A stretch of DNA of 64,000 nucleotides from Mycobacterium sp. UM_CSW (GTDB lineage: Bacteria; Actinomycetota; Actinomycetes; Mycobacteriales; Mycobacteriaceae), in assembly GCF_000455205.1 (NCBI RefSeq), contig NZ_AUWQ01000029.1:1-64000 (forward strand), in the 5' to 3' direction. A program made the translations under genes and the position numbers. The notes beneath the pieces are model-generated. The model searched no databases. It was given only the letters and a program-made list of their open reading frames with translations, and was not told the DNA's origin. Shown here in pieces: positions 3,806-53,146 of the stretch (the stretch's first letter is position 1; each line of letters begins with the position of its first letter).

Positions 3806-4279
3806 ATGAAAGAGCGCGTGCCCGACTCCACGGGCCTTCCCCTTCGGGCCATGGTGATGGTGCTGTTGTTCCTGGGCGTCATCTTCCTGCTGCTCGGGTG
3901 GCAGGCGCTCAGTTCCTCCGGCAAGTCCGATGACGAGTCGGCCTCGGCGGCGTCCAGCGTCACCAGCACCACCACCTCGTCGGCCGCCACCAGCAGCGCC
4001 CCCGCGAACCAGGCCGAGGTGCACGTCTACAACATCTCGTCCAAAGAGGGTGTCGCCGCAAAGACCAAGGATCAGCTCACGTCCGCCGGGTTCAAGGTGA
4101 CCGACGTCGGAAACCTGACGATCCCCGACGTCACGGCGACGACGGTGTATTACACCGACGCCGAGGGCGAGCACGCCACCGCGGACGCGGTGGGCCAGAA
4201 GCTGGGAGCGCCCGTCCAGCCGCGGATTCCGGCGCTCAAGGACCAGCCGCCCGGCGTCATCGTCCTGGTGACGGGCTGA
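3806..4279 (+). CDS. LytR_C-domain membrane-anchored protein (Rv0431-like)
   Basis: A 157-residue protein with a short cytoplasmic start, one transmembrane helix (about residues 15-36, MVMVLLFLGVIFLLLGW), a Ser/Thr/Ala-rich linker and an extracytoplasmic LytR_C-type domain (VHVYNISSKEG ... ITVYYTDAEGE region). In M. tuberculosis the orthologue is annotated as a tuberculin-related peptide. The LytR_C fold accompanies cell-envelope proteins, so it probably acts at the membrane-wall interface. It lies between the DUF3263 gene and sodC on the same strand. Confidence 0.85.
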   Translation: MKERVPDSTGLPLRAMVMVLLFLGVIFLLLGWQALSSSGKSDDESASAASSVTSTTTSSAATSSAPANQAEVHVYNISSKEGVAAKTKDQLTSAGFKVTDVGNLTIPDVTATTVYYTDAEGEHATADAVGQKLGAPVQPRIPALKDQPPGVIVLVTG

Positions 4280-4325
4280 GGGACGCTGCTCGGAGATTCG
4301 GGGGTGCTCGGGATAGGCTCTCGCT

Positions 4326-5033
4326 ATGCCTAAGCACCGCAACGCCGCCGCCATGCCCGCCCTATTCGCGGTGGGTTGCGTCGCCTTGGTGGGCGCGTGC
4401 GCATCGCCCCAGCACGCCTCGTCGGTCCCCGGCACCACTCCGGCGGTGTGGACCGGGTCGAGCGCGTCGACGGCCAGCGCGGGCGCCGAGGGCGATCAGC
4501 AACAGCAGCCCGCGGGGCGCAGCATCATCACCCGGCTGAAGGGACCCGACGGGGTCGAGGTGGCGACCGCGAAGTTCGATTTCAGCAACGGCTACGCCAC
4601 CATCACGATCGCGACGAGCGGCGCCGGCCACCTCGCGCCGGGGTTCCACGGCGTACACATCCACAAGGTCGGCAAGTGCGAGGCCAATTCGACGGCCCCG
4701 ACCGGCGGCGCGCCCGGCGACTTCCTGTCCGCCGGCGGGCATTTCCAGGCGCCGGGGCATTCCGGGTCACCGGAGAGCGGCGACCTGACCTCGCTGCAGG
4801 TCCGCAAGGACGGGGTCGGGATGTTGGTGACGACCACCGACGCCTTCGCCATGGAGGATCTGCTGACCGGCGAGAAGACCGCGATCGTGATCCACGCGGG
4901 CGCCGACAATTTCGCCAACATCCCATCCGATCGCTACAACCAGACCAACGGAACGCCGGGCCCCGACCAGATGACGATGACGACCGGTGACGCCGGCAAG
5001 CGGGTGGCGTGCGGTGTCATCGGTGCCGGCTAG
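4326..5033 (+). CDS. sodC: Cu/Zn superoxide dismutase, lipoprotein
   Basis: A 235-residue exported superoxide dismutase. The lipobox LVGAC near residues 22-26 marks it as a lipoprotein displayed on the outer face of the cytoplasmic membrane. Copper-ligand motif [11 protein letters not shown] is present, followed by [18 protein letters not shown] with bridging and zinc His/Asp residues, and [11 protein letters not shown] near the end. It dismutates superoxide outside the membrane, such as that from a phagocyte burst. The end overlaps by 11 bp the start of the next gene, so the two are probably co-translated. Confidence 0.94.
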
Positions 5034-47508: not shown

Positions 47509-48335
47509 TGCGCGCCGACGACGATGCAGAGCGCAGCGATGAGGAGGAGCGGCGCCATGATGCCGTGGGTGCCGTGATCACCGCCGCGGCCGCGGACCTG
47601 CTGGCCCGGCTGCAGGAGCGGCACGGCCCGGTGATGTTCCACCAGTCCGGCGGCTGCTGCGACGGGTCGTCGCCGATGTGCTACCCGCGCGGGGATTTCC
47701 TGGTCGGCGACCGCGACGTGCTGCTCGGCGTGCTCGACGTCGGGGACGGGGTGCCGGTGTGGATCTCGGGCCCGCAGTACCAGACCTGGAAGCACACCCA
47801 ACTGGTCATCGACGTCGTCCCGGGACGCGGCGGCGGGTTCAGCCTCGAGGCGCCCGAGGGCGTGCGGTTCTTGTCGCGCGGGCGCGTCTTCACCGACGAA
47901 GAGCAGGCCGAGCTGGCGGCCGAATCCGTCATCACCGGCGCCGCCTACGAGCGTGGCGAACGCCCGTCGGCGCGCGGCCCGGTGGTGACGCCCGATCAAG
48001 CGGCCGCGCCGGGACGTGCAGCCCTCCCACTCGATGACGGCGCTACCCTCGTCAGCGTGATCCCGCTCCCGCGTCCCTGGCAGCTGGCCGGCGCCATGTT
48101 GATCGGCTGTGCCGTCGGGTTTTTGGCCGGGGTCGCGCTCACCGTGCTGGTGCACGCGAGGATCCGGCCCGACGTCGTCATCGCGCTGGTGGTCGGGGTC
48201 CCCGCCGTGTTCGGGTTGCTGACGGTCCTGTTCTCCGGGCGCCGCTGGGTGACCGCGCTCGGCGCGTTCATCCTGTCGCTCGGGCCGGGTTGGTTCGGCG
48301 TGCTCGTCGCCCTGCGGGTGACCTGCGGTGGCTGA
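47508..48335 (+). CDS. DUF779 protein fused to a small membrane protein (Rv0459-Rv0460 in one frame)
   Basis: A 275-residue open frame. Residues ~1-150 are a DUF779 protein (HGPVMFHQSGGCCDGSSPMCYP, DVLLGVLDVGDGVPVWI). From about residue 184 (VIPLPRPWQLAGAMLIGCAVGF) it matches the separate membrane protein Rv0460, with three helices. No stop separates the two parts. GTG 48057 is in frame and could start the second protein alone, so it may be a fusion or two proteins. ATG 47508 overlaps the aldehyde dehydrogenase stop (TGATG), and the 3' end overlaps the next gene by 8 bp. Confidence 0.8.
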
Positions 48336-48861
48336 CGAGGAGGACACGGGCACCCAGTCATGGGTCCCGGACTTTTCCGACGACGACGACACCGGCCCGC
48401 GGCTGGCGGCCGAGTCACTCCCGGAGGAAAAGGAGGGCTCCGCCGACGAGGGCGCCGCCGACGAGGTCCCCGCCGAGGAGGAGGCCGGGGCCGAAGCCGG
48501 CGGGCTGCCGGTGCAACCGGTCGCCGTGCCCGGTCGCTACCAGTACCTGCGGTGGTGGCACCTGGTTCTGGTCCTCTTCGGCGGGTGGATCGTGGCGGGC
48601 GTGGTCGGGCTCGGGCTCTTCTATTGGTGGTACCACTCAATCGACAAGACGCCCGCGGTGTTCACGGTCCTGGTGTACGTCGTGGCGTGCGCGGTGGGCG
48701 GCGTGCTGCTGGCCATGGCGGAGGGCAGGGCGCTGATCTCCGCGCTGTCGCTCGCGGTGATGTCGGGGCCGTTCGCGTCCGTCGCCGCCGCGGCGCCCCT
48801 ATACGGCTACTACTACTGCGCCCATACGGGCCACTGCCTGATCGGCGTCATCCCGTACTAA
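48328..48861 (+). CDS. acidic membrane protein (Rv0461-like)
   Basis: A 177-residue protein (Rv0461 is 174). The first ~70 residues are strongly acidic (EEDTGTQSW, DDDDTG, EEKEGSADEGAADEV), then come helices at about residues 76-100, 108-130 and 135-160, and a Cys-containing end (YYYCAHTGHCLIG). It starts at GTG 48328 inside the end of the previous gene. It is the last gene of the aldehyde dehydrogenase operon before the inserted element. Function unknown. Confidence 0.85.
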   Translation: MADEEDTGTQSWVPDFSDDDDTGPRLAAESLPEEKEGSADEGAADEVPAEEEAGAEAGGLPVQPVAVPGRYQYLRWWHLVLVLFGGWIVAGVVGLGLFYWWYHSIDKTPAVFTVLVYVVACAVGGVLLAMAEGRALISALSLAVMSGPFASVAAAAPLYGYYYCAHTGHCLIGVIPY

Positions 48862-48865
48862 GAGT

Positions 48866-48882
48866 TGACCCATATTGGGTCA
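48866..48882. repeat. perfect palindrome at the inner boundary of the inserted element
   Basis: TGACCC-ATATT-GGGTCA starts 4 bp after the Rv0461-like stop and overlaps the stop codon of the TnpB-like gene. IS200/IS605 elements carry short hairpins at their ends, so it may mark the right end of the element. It could also act as a weak transcription end for the converging genes. Confidence 0.4.
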
Positions 48883-50886
48883 TGCGGCACCAATCAGCTT
48901 GGGGGCTGGTTGTTTTCGGCTGGTCCCGCGACGTCCGGGCTTGGAGTCTGGTCTGTTCGGGGGTGGGCCGGGTGCTGCTTGCTCAGCAGAGGCCACCACC
49001 GGGTGATGGCTGCCGGTCCTGGCCGAGCCAGCACCATTTGATGGTGGTCGTGGCTGGTGCCGGTTGACTGAGCCCTCCCACTCTTGCTGGGAGGCAAGCC
49101 ACACCCGTTGCAGGGTGTTGGCAAGCGTGTAGTCGACGCGCGCGGTGCGCGGATCATCGGGATCGGCGAGCTCGACGCATGCCGCCAGGATCGCCGAGGT
49201 GACGTCGCGGTCGGCCTGCAATCCGCATTCGGGGCAGTGGTGAGTGCGCTGTGCGAGCGTCTTGGGCACTCGATGACCGCATAAGCAGTGCTGGGACAGT
49301 GCGGTGCTGCGGGTACTGGCACGGTACAGTCTGCCGCCGGCGGCTTGGCATTCGCGTTCGAGGGCGGCCACCAGCATGCCGGGGCTAAACAACTGAATAC
49401 GCTTGCCCCACAACCTGGCCCAGGTCGAGATCCGGCAGTCTTCCACGGTGATCGCGTTGCCGTGGGCGGCAACGATCCGCGCGGAAACCTGCTCGGCGCG
49501 GGCCTGTTTGGCCTGACTGGCGGTGCGGGACTCGCTGGTGCGATCGCTGCGGGTGCGCTGATAGCGGCGGGAGAGCGTGTCGTGGCGGTAGGCACGCAGT
49601 GGCACCCCATCGGCGCGGGCAGCCCTCGGCCCGCCGGGGTTGGTGATCTGGCGTGCCGCCAACCCGGCCGCCGCTCGACGGGCCGCTCGCTTGTGCTGCC
49701 GCTGCGATGGGCCGTACTGATTGGGGTTGCTGTTACGCCGCGACCGATCCAACGCCTTGTGCCGTGCCCGGGCCTTCTTGGCCGCCCGCGCCGCGGCCTT
49801 CTGTTGTTCAGGTGTGCAGTCGATCCGATCGATGACCAGTTGCGCGGGACACTGGCTTGGGAACGAGGCGACCGCCAGGTTGGACACGTTGGCATCCACC
49901 CCGGCCCGCCGGCCGGCCGGAATCTCGGCGCGGCGGGCTCGGGTGGCCGGGGACTGATACCCGCTTTGATGGACCAGTAGGTGCGCGTAGTAGCGCCAGC
50001 CGCCAGGGGCCCGACGATCGGCGACGCGGACCAGGTCGATCTTGTGCCACACATCCGGATCGGCCAGGAAATGGGCCAGATGCGCCCACCGGCCCGCCCC
50101 TTGCGGTAGCCGCACAGGTAGCACGAGATCTCCGGCGGGCAGCCCGGTGAATACCACCGCCAGAACACCATCGTGATCCCACCAGGAGCCGCTGGCCGGC
50201 CGCCTCGGTGGCGCCAGCCGAGCGGGCTGGCCCAGGACCGAGGTGCCCGCCACCCGACCGGTCGCCGCGGTCGCCGTGCTCACTGCAGCAGGCAGCCCTG
50301 GGTGCCGATATTCGCCCAGGTGCCCATCCAAGGTGCCGACCAGCCGGTAGGTTTCCCACGTCGGCCGACTCTTGGTGTGGGACCGGGCCCGGCCGGGAAT
50401 GCGGGTGAACTCCCACCACGACCCCACCCGCGGCGGGCCGTGCCGGCGTCCCGAGGCGTGGGCAAACAGATGCCGATCCACCGTTTCCCACACTTCGTCA
50501 GCCACGTGCAACCCGATGGCTTTGGTCAGGTGATCCCGCATCCATCCGCTGTCCTCAATATGGCGCTTGGCCGCGGCCTCAAGACCTTTGCGCGTCAATC
50601 CCAGCCGCTCGCGCACCGCGTTCGGATCACGGGCCCGTTCTTGGCGGGCCGCCCGATACACCTGACACCGCGCTTGGGCGTCGCGCTGCAGCGCGCGGCG
50701 CAGCCGAAACACCGCCTCCCAGTGCCGGTCCACCCGCCGCCGCACCACCGGGTCGCTGACGTCGAGTTCCAGGCGGATCACCGACACCGGCCCGCGGTAT
50801 GTGAAGTTGGGGGCCTTCGACTTGCCGCGCCGCCGCGGAATCATCTCATCGCTGATAGCGGTGGGGCTGGCTGCCATGTGCGTCAT
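48880..50886 (-). CDS. large TnpB-like RuvC endonuclease
   Basis: A 668-residue protein, well above the ~400 of canonical TnpB. Residues 1-~320 form a long, Arg-rich N-terminal region. RuvC motifs follow: Asp331 in AGVDANVSNLA, Glu482 in ITVEDCRIS, and DRDVTSA at about 559-565. A zinc ribbon (CLCG ... CPECG) lies just before the last motif; its first knuckle is C-x-C instead of C-x2-C. The Pro-rich last 60 residues are probably disordered. ATG 50886 is tentative; ATG 50877 or 50844 may be the true start. TnpB proteins are RNA-guided nucleases. No tnpA or CRISPR lies nearby. Confidence 0.85.
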   Translation of the reverse strand: MTHMAASPTAISDEMIPRRRGKSKAPNFTYRGPVSVIRLELDVSDPVVRRRVDRHWEAVFRLRRALQRDAQARCQVYRAARQERARDPNAVRERLGLTRKGLEAAAKRHIEDSGWMRDHLTKAIGLHVADEVWETVDRHLFAHASGRRHGPPRVGSWWEFTRIPGRARSHTKSRPTWETYRLVGTLDGHLGEYRHPGLPAAVSTATAATGRVAGTSVLGQPARLAPPRRPASGSWWDHDGVLAVVFTGLPAGDLVLPVRLPQGAGRWAHLAHFLADPDVWHKIDLVRVADRRAPGGWRYYAHLLVHQSGYQSPATRARRAEIPAGRRAGVDANVSNLAVASFPSQCPAQLVIDRIDCTPEQQKAAARAAKKARARHKALDRSRRNSNPNQYGPSQRQHKRAARRAAAGLAARQITNPGGPRAARADGVPLRAYRHDTLSRRYQRTRSDRTSESRTASQAKQARAEQVSARIVAAHGNAITVEDCRISTWARLWGKRIQLFSPGMLVAALERECQAAGGRLYRASTRSTALSQHCLCGHRVPKTLAQRTHHCPECGLQADRDVTSAILAACVELADPDDPRTARVDYTLANTLQRVWLASQQEWEGSVNRHQPRPPSNGAGSARTGSHHPVVASAEQAAPGPPPNRPDSKPGRRGTSRKQPAPKLIGAA

Positions 50887-51362
50887 GAAACCATCACCCA
50901 CTGACACCGACACGCTGCGACACCGATGGCGAAACCTGCTGCCGCTCACCGGGCTAACCTGCGCCTAGGTGCAGCCGCTGTACGCCATGGCCGCACAGCG
51001 GCTGCCGCCACTTCTCGGACGGCCCTCGGCCCTGCCGTTGGCGGTGCGGGTGCTGCTGGTGCTCGCCCATCTGCGCACAAACCTGACCACCCGCGCGCTG
51101 GCGGCGCTGTTTTACACCAGCCAATCCAGGGTGGACCGCGTCATCCATTACCTGGTGCGGTGCTGCCCGCGCGTTACAGCCCATTCCGACCGGCGGCACC
51201 GGGCCGTGGATCATCACGGCCCTCTCATCCCGGTGCACGATCAGTCGATCACCGCCGTCAGTAAGAACTACCGCCGCAGCGTCAACCACCCAGATCATCA
51301 TCTGTGCTCACCGGCGCCGCGTGCTGGTAGCCAGTCACTGCTGGCCCGGTAACCGCAACGAC
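50885..51362 (+). pseudogene. decayed, truncated IS5-type (DDE) transposase
   Basis: Reading from ATG 50885, the frame has an in-frame TAG at 50966-50968, then a good helix-turn-helix part (RVLLVLAHLRTNLTTRALAA, TSQSRVDRVIHYLV). After that the conserved text changes frame several times: ALQPIPTGGTGPWII, then PLIPVHDQSITAVSKNYRRS, then QIIICAHRRRVLV and HCWPGNRND. These are segments of the DDE_Tnp_4 family, including the Asp-containing VHDQS strand. The remainder of the catalytic domain is missing. Its first ATG shares the CATG with the TnpB-like start on the other strand. Confidence 0.8.
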
Positions 51363-51657
51363 GGTCAGCACAGCATTGACCTCCTCGGTGGCAACCGGGC
51401 AGTGCTCAACTCCACGGGGAACAACGAACAGTTGTCCCGCCCCACCACGACGTCTCGATCACGCAGCCGGATCGTCAGCTAAACGTGCTAAGACCAGGAA
51501 CAGTTCGTCGGTGTCTTCGTGGCTATGCCAGACCAACCCGCCATCAAGTTTGACAACCTTGATTTCGTAATCGCTCAGGCGCGCAACCATTTTCGGTGAC
51601 CAGAGCCCGGAGAAACAACGATAACTCCTCGGTGAGGCCCACGACGTTATTCGTCAC
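51363..51657 (-). pseudogene. decayed cupin gene remnant
   Basis: On the minus strand, three frames together read as a small cupin: GTG 51657 begins TNNVVGLTEELSLF, the next frame continues LWSPKMVARLSDYEIKVVKL and WHSHEDTDELFLVL, and the third reads RLRDRDVVVG then QLFVVPRGVEHCPVATEEVN. At least two frameshifts and a stop break it. The end is cut at about 51363 by the transposase remnant, which suggests that the IS inserted into or beside this gene. Confidence 0.7.
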
Positions 51658-51751
51658 GACACAAGCATGACCCGCTACCCACAGCGTTCAAATCGCCATC
51701 GAGCGCCCACCACGATTACAGGTCACCTTTTAGGCCGTTAGGGTAGGGCTC

Positions 51752-53146
<1,395 letters not shown>

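What the first reader, a model, noticed from the sequence alone, without database searches (positions are those of the whole stretch)
48880..50886. Large TnpB-like nuclease with intact RuvC triad inserted beside lpdC
The protein is 668 residues with Asp-Glu-Asp RuvC positions all present, about 1.6 times a canonical TnpB, with a ~320-residue N-terminal region and a 150-residue insert between RuvC-I and RuvC-II. The zinc ribbon first knuckle is shortened to C-x-C. No tnpA, serine recombinase or CRISPR array is next to it. It may be a lone guide-RNA nuclease on its way to a host role, or an intermediate toward type V-U effectors such as the mycobacterial Cas12m group.
Basis: partly seen in the sequence, partly recalled or inferred. 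Interest (0 to 1): 0.75.

Follow-up and report, generated by a model that had tools for sequence, protein, structure and literature searches.

The report
Cut-and-paste transposon carrying large TnpB
This gene looks like a large RNA-guided DNA-cutting enzyme that travels in a small bacterial jumping element together with an ordinary cut-and-paste transposase, a partnership I did not find described in bacteria; in this copy the transposase has decayed but the RNA-guided enzyme gene is still intact.

Summary
The 668-aa TnpB-like ORF is real, with an intact RuvC triad, but it is not lone. It lies in a 2.87-kb transposon (48861-51730) with terminal inverted repeats, inserted at CTAG with TA duplicated; a sister genome shows the empty site. 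The transposon's other gene is a divergent DDE (IS5-like) transposase. Here the transposase and a cupin cargo gene are pseudogenes; tnpB is not. The DDE gene or a remnant accompanies this TnpB in 31 of 35 elements, Mycobacterium to Euzebya. The last ~50 tnpB codons plus the right end form a conserved structured RNA ending at the element border, as an omegaRNA should. Best explanation: a bacterial TnpB recruited by a DDE cut-and-paste element, predicted to cut emptied CTAG sites and so restore the element. A Cas12m intermediate is not supported. Searches of an open paper library listed no bacterial DDE-TnpB element; key subscription papers could not be read. No structure model was obtained; nothing is bench-tested.

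The parts
48861..51730 (.). transposon body; TA target duplication at 48859-48860 and 51731-51732, target C-TA-G
   Evidence: TIRs at both ends; empty site in sister-genome locus L049
48858..48878 (+). right-end terminal inverted repeat (CTAAGAGTTGACCC...)
51713..51733 (-). left-end terminal inverted repeat (read on - strand CTAAAAGGTGACC...)
   Evidence: 4 mismatches to the 21-nt consensus
48880..50886 (-). large TnpB, 668 aa; RuvC D331/E482/D561; zinc ribbon H533 C534 C536 C551 C554
48858..49033 (-). predicted omegaRNA scaffold, overlapping the tnpB 3' end and running to the element border
   Evidence: synonymous-site drop, shared structure, fold z -3.4 for 48840-49033, covariance-model hits in relatives
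48838..48857 (-). predicted guide segment (host DNA, antisense to the 3' end of gene 48328-48861)
   Evidence: position just outside a sharp border; identical in the empty allele of L049; inferred from the ISDra2 reRNA layout (PMC8612924, passages)
50885..51366 (+). DDE transposase pseudogene (HTH_Tnp_4; catalytic C-terminal part missing)
   Evidence: relatives L041, L042, L045 score over Pfam cut-offs for HTH_Tnp_4 and DDE_Tnp_4
51367..51711 (-). cupin cargo pseudogene, intact in the M. kyorinense element L005
48328..48861 (+). host gene whose TAG stop was the insertion site; stop is now TAA

Best explanation
This is a two-gene cut-and-paste transposon: an IS5-like DDE transposase moves the element into CTAG sites (TA duplicated), and a divergent gene encodes a large TnpB. 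[quoted passage not shown] When the transposase excises the element and leaves CTAG next to the guide-matching sequence, TnpB is expected to recognise CTAG as its TAM, cut the emptied site, and so force repair from an intact copy, which puts the element back (or carries it into an empty homologous allele). In the filled site the four bases before the guide read TTAG, not CTAG, so the element would spare itself. In the window the transposase is dead while the nuclease gene and RNA remain. Shown by sequence: ends, target, gene pair, co-diversification, RNA conservation, decay pattern. Inferred: excision, cleavage, TAM, restoration.
For: Bounded element: related TIRs flank tnpB and the DDE gene in Mycobacterium, Hoyosella, Streptomyces and Euzebya and in L103 and L105 from other parts of the phylum (in L104 only the right end was found). 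Empty site: L049 reads CCGTAC-TAG-GCC where the window reads CCGTAC-TA[element]TAG-GCC; L016 against L142 (97% identical right flank, no element) again shows the TA duplication. Partnership: DDE gene or remnant in 31 of 35 elements, opposite strand in 31 of 31; 12 of the 13 genus genomes with the DDE protein are among the 23 of 297 with a TnpB match; distances of the two proteins correlate over 12 loci, Mantel r 0.97, 0 of 5000 permutations. RNA: pS 0.34-0.59 over the first 600 codons, 0.17 over the last 68; 96.2% of cells paired and 13 cells changed on both sides, each 0 of 500 shuffles, slid controls 17-41% paired; the model finds the right ends of 5 loci not used to build it. Border: no strong flank signal beyond C-TA at 27 right and 26 left ends. 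Nuclease residues invariant. Decay contrast.
Against: No biochemistry. TAM = CTAG rests on the insertion target alone; the second empty site has TTAG in the sister. Within mycobacteria alone the protein distances correlate only weakly (r 0.24). Two RNA measures do not beat shuffles: pairs with a double change, 4 (42 of 500 as high), and further pair types, 14 (484 of 500). The window RNA has mismatches in the covarying stem (my reading). The RNA model does not find L103-L106 and only weakly L044 and L045; L006 and L010 are copies in one genome. TnpB scores 61 bits with NCBIfam guided_TnpB, under its cut-off of 100. Four of 35 elements show no DDE match: L004 with an intact tnpB, L003 with a full-length tnpB holding a stop, and the fragments L046 and L106. 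Some counted remnants are short (34-49 aa in L002, L032, L036, L044). No structure model.
Confidence: 0.8

Rival explanations
1. The TnpB in this window has been taken over by the host: a domesticated RNA-guided nuclease or regulator acting on the 3' end of the neighbouring gene or elsewhere.
For: Single copy, transposase dead, tnpB intact; pairwise dN/dS against M. kyorinense about 0.26 and 0.33 in its two halves.
Against: Sparse: 23 of 297 genus genomes have any match, 7 over 590 residues or more. Not at a shared locus: of 29 other loci opened around the left-hand gene, 25 have the lpdC-type gene 22-112 nt away without the element and 4 gave no lpdC match (loci were opened for the best-scoring genomes only, of 170 of 198 with that gene). 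Catalytic residues intact, unlike TldR-type regulators (recalled). The selection seen may predate the death of the transposase.
Confidence: 0.12
2. The DDE gene and tnpB are separate elements that happen to sit together (an IS5-type insertion beside an IS1341-type tnpB).
For: DDE relatives at about 41-44% identity are common on Streptomyces plasmids; three were opened and none has a TnpB match within 2.5 kb, one with clear ends (L139). A DDE-only derivative (L079) and a deleted derivative keeping both ends (L022) exist.
Against: Shared outer TIRs, empty site spanning both genes, overlapping or adjacent divergent starts, 31 of 35 elements, co-diversification.
Confidence: 0.04
3. An intermediate toward type V-U/Cas12m CRISPR effectors.
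For: Mycobacterial host; H-C-C-C-like zinc residues.
Against: D-E-D triad, no CRISPR-like repeats, no hit named Cas12m among PDB or PADLOC matches.
Confidence: 0.03

Closest known systems
TnpB of IS200/IS605 and IS607 elements (OMEGA nucleases, e.g. ISDra2)
   Same: RuvC D-E-D, TNB zinc ribbon, RNA scaffold overlapping the tnpB 3' end and the right end, guide position outside the right end
   Different: partner is a DDE transposase, not Y1 or serine; true TIRs and TA duplication; about 650-690 aa; C-x-C first knuckle; CTAG target
IS5-family insertion sequences with CTAG targets (ISMysh01 of M. shottsii, PMC9241763, passages; Streptomyces IS at L139)
   Same: single-ORF transposase, TIRs, CTAG at the ends; L139 ends (AGAGGTTGTCCCGTAA) resemble those here (AGAGWTGWCCCGTAAT)
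   Different: no tnpB reported or found there; the transposase here scores 56 bits with NCBIfam IS5_4, below its cut-off of 140
Fanzor1 in eukaryotic DDE transposons
   Same: TnpB relative carried by DDE cut-and-paste transposons (PMC10711439, one passage of the introduction)
   Different: eukaryotic, other DDE superfamilies, divergent protein
Cas12m2 (type V-M)
   Same: H-C-C-C zinc residues possible
   Different: H-D-D RuvC that does not cleave, CRISPR-guided (PMC10442227, passages), no transposon ends

Membership tests
TnpB / OMEGA nuclease | RuvC D-E-D triad | tested here: met
   D331, E482, D561 invariant in 12 sequences
TnpB / OMEGA nuclease | TNB zinc ribbon | tested here: met
   Pfam PF07282 35.9 bits over cut-off 26.3; first knuckle C-x-C rather than C-x2-C
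TnpB / OMEGA nuclease | structured RNA at the tnpB 3' end ending at the right end | tested here: met
   by sequence only:
TnpB / OMEGA nuclease | curated NCBIfam guided_TnpB score | tested here: not met
   61.1 bits against cut-off 100; a naming threshold, not a biological feature
TnpB / OMEGA nuclease | RNA-guided, TAM-dependent cleavage | not testable with these tools
   needs bench work
IS200/IS605 | Y1 TnpA; ends without TIRs | tested here: not met
   Pfam Y1_Tnp: no match in the whole genome (6 of 14 control genomes ring); TIRs present
IS607 | serine recombinase TnpA | tested here: not met
   one Resolvase match in the genome, on another contig, C34; in L041 an IS607 pair lies beside, outside, the element
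IS5-type DDE insertion sequence | HTH + DDE transposase with D-D-E | tested here: met
   HTH_Tnp_4, DDE_Tnp_4, DDE_Tnp_1 over cut-offs in L041, L042, L045; D, D and E columns invariant among the 12 aligned, some partial. Met by relatives; the window copy is broken
IS5-type DDE insertion sequence | TIRs and CTAG-type target duplication | tested here: met
IS5-type DDE insertion sequence | NCBIfam IS5 cut-off | tested here: not met
   IS5_4 56.5 bits against 140
Cas12m (V-M) | H-D-D RuvC and CRISPR array | tested here: not met

The most novel reading that the evidence does not exclude
Bacteria have their own counterpart of the eukaryotic Fanzor1-DDE transposons: an IS5-type cut-and-paste element captured a TnpB and an omegaRNA, spread across Actinomycetota with it, made the transposase target CTAG double as the TAM, and uses RNA-guided cleavage to make a double-strand cut-and-paste transposon effectively copy itself, homing into stop codons that the insertion leaves intact.
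Probability: 0.6. Interest if true: 0.85.

Novelty: new variant of a known kind. Interest (0 to 1): 0.74.

Why it matters
Bacterial TnpB has been explained through two transposase chemistries, Y1 and serine. A DDE partner would show that the nuclease is modular and serves conventional double-strand cut-and-paste transposition too, which links bacterial TnpB to the DDE-associated Fanzors of eukaryotes and makes the 'nuclease as retention device' model testable in a system where excision should leave a plain CTAG. It also gives a set of large, uncharacterised actinobacterial TnpBs with a predicted TAM and predicted guide RNA.

Tried and rejected
Rejected: lone TnpB (TIRs and DDE partner found); Cas12m intermediate; chance neighbours. 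Rfam: no match up to E 1 in 48000-52500. Viral contigs: 40 stretches matched a pattern, none confirmed; phages: no match. ndk site (L012): in L108 and L109 both flanks are found about 160 nt apart without the element, but the sequence between has diverged too far for a base-exact empty site. (IS5_4 model, own genome: no match) is weak, since it does not detect the window's own remnant either, with the DDE protein, finds only that remnant in the own genome. Structure prediction: busy on many calls, one job accepted, failed, then switched off; no fold comparison was made. No broad TnpB tree was built, so a transposase swap or the direction of capture has no rooted tree behind it. The PNAS 2023 TnpB/Cas12 classification paper (recalled) is not held, so novelty against it is untested.

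Rows dropped before counts: I left out TnpB loci matching only the RuvC/zinc part (L011, L025, L027-L031, L033, L037-L040, L047) and duplicates (L008 with L005, L013, L014, L102). In one search, 57 junction sides were scored: 22 STOP-frame, 6 in another frame (one of them the lpdC 5' flank read backwards), 29 undecided; the 19-of-34 element tally and the right/left split were made by hand. The odds of the best explanation were lowered from 0.82 to 0.80 on recheck, for the weak within-mycobacteria correlation and the RNA measures that do not beat shuffles.

Full report
What is there. The ORF at 48880-50886 (minus) encodes 668 aa with a Cas12f1-like TNB domain over the Pfam cut-off. RuvC residues D331, E482 and D561 and residues H533, C534, C536, C551 and C554 of the zinc ribbon are invariant in 12 relatives. 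It is single copy in its genome, and so is its 3' RNA region. The genome has no Y1 transposase match and one serine-recombinase match, on another contig.

It is part of a transposon. The four near-full-length plasmid relatives that are annotated have a divergent 'transposase family protein' beside the TnpB, in M. intracellulare (two), M. abscessus and Euzebya. That protein is HTH_Tnp_4 + DDE_Tnp_4, IS5-like at 56 bits but below the NCBIfam cut-off. In the window its remnant starts at 50885, overlapping the tnpB start codon. Outside the pair lie terminal inverted repeats, CTAAGAGTTGACCCGTAAT and its complement; in the window they are at 48858-48878 and 51713-51733, with a cupin fragment between the DDE remnant and the left end that M. 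kyorinense (L005) carries intact. Related repeats bound the element in Hoyosella, Streptomyces and Euzebya. With a profile, 5 of 396 phylum genomes have the protein, one of them the window's own; of the other 4, L103, L104 and L105 have a DDE gene and L106, a broken element of about 1.1 kb, has none.

Target and empty sites. The left-hand gene was found in 170 of 198 genus genomes and the 29 best other loci were opened: in 25 the lpdC-type gene follows within 22-112 nt, in 4 it was not matched. L049, the closest, reads CCGTAC-TAG-GCC exactly where the window reads CCGTAC-TA[element]TAG-GCC, so the target was CTAG, TA was duplicated, and the gene's TAG stop became TAA. The 20 nt of the predicted guide are identical in L049. 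A second site, L016 against L142, shows the same duplication, with TTAG in the sister. Across 27 right and 26 left ends the strong sequence signal stops at the C of C-TA; flank positions carry at most 0.36 bit.

Stop codons. CTAG is rare in these sequences (104 scored sites, about 550 expected from composition, in 176,729 bp of 12 loci). By one heuristic 22 of 57 junction sides (19 of 34 elements) sit at the stop codon of a gene, against 31 of 208 sides (29 of 104 sites) in the background (Fisher P 0.0003 and 0.004; the elements are related, so P is optimistic). Insertion keeps a stop there because the repeat begins with A after C-TA.

Partnership. DDE gene or remnant: 31 of 35 elements, opposite strand in all 31. 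In the genus, 13 of 297 genomes have the DDE protein and 12 of these are among the 23 of 297 with a TnpB match; G120 has the DDE protein alone. Distances of the two proteins correlate over 12 loci (r 0.97, 0 of 5000 permutations), carried by the deep splits: within mycobacteria alone r is 0.24. DDE relatives at about 41-44% identity abound on Streptomyces plasmids (136 plasmid records with a match, 124 Streptomyces; 30 listed). Three were opened; none has a TnpB match within 2.5 kb, and one (L139) shows ends AGAGGTTGTCCCGTAA about 0.88 kb apart at CTAG, while the other two gave no clear ends. This suggests, without proof, that such an IS captured tnpB.

The RNA. Synonymous divergence (pS, 28 pairs of 8 sequences) is 0.34-0.59 over the first 600 codons and 0.17 over the last 68. 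The last 176 nt of 18 elements, solo right ends included, share a structure: 96.2% of cells pair and 13 cells change on both sides (0 of 500 shuffles reach either); slid versions pair 17-41%. Two measures are not exceptional: pairs with a double change (4; 42 of 500 as high) and further pair types (14; 484 of 500). The window RNA with 18 nt of flank folds at z -3.4. A covariance model searched over 23 sources finds, besides the window, the right end in 5 loci outside its training set at E 3e-9 to 9e-36 (L006 and L010 are copies in one genome), weakly L044 and L045, and not L103-L106. ISDra2 TnpB carries a ~150-nt RNA from the tnpB 3' end and right end plus ~16 nt of flank, and its TAM is the sequence its transposase requires (PMC8612924, passages); the layout here is the same.

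Decay in the window. Against L005 the DDE and cupin stretch has 10 frame-breaking indels in 849 nt, two of them large deletions; the 2004-nt tnpB is open. Pairwise dN/dS of tnpB against M. kyorinense is about 0.26 and 0.33 in its two halves. So the nuclease gene outlived its transposase. Whether for the element's benefit or the host's is open.

Novelty. Paper searches (listings; one search returned none; capped lists), with 76 and 121 on neighbouring topics, and passages of PMC10711439, PMC9956272, PMC11870625 and PMC10432273 gave no bacterial DDE-associated TnpB; PMC10711439 names DDE partners for eukaryotic Fanzor1. The library lacks most subscription papers, and the 2023 PNAS classification is not held.

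Noticed in passing
window 51367-51711 (-); L005 4860-5222: Cupin gene carried as cargo inside the element in M. kyorinense (intact, 120 aa) and in the window (broken).
   Followed up: partly
L044 3026-8002: The Streptomyces element has about 2.8 kb between its left end/DDE remnant and tnpB, with an ORF that looks (by eye, no search) like a SAM methyltransferase at 3905-4702.
   Followed up: no
L022 1462-2183; L036, L032, L046; L079 1498-2227: Internally deleted or solo-right-end derivatives keep the RNA region, and one derivative keeps only the DDE gene: possible non-autonomous elements served in trans.
   Followed up: partly
elements with both ends known: When only one end faces a stop codon it is more often the right end (9 versus 2 by hand count, binomial P 0.065), so the predicted guide would be antisense to a conserved coding 3' end.
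   Followed up: partly
H533-C534-x-C536 / C551-x2-C554 of the TnpB (window 49218-49290 region, - strand): An invariant histidine gives an H-x2-C...C-x2-C pattern like the H-C-C-C zinc finger of Cas12m2; ligands not resolved without a structure.
   Followed up: partly
L047 1455-3555: A mycobacterial plasmid also carries a different large TnpB (554 aa) beside a Y1 IS200/IS605 transposase.
   Followed up: no
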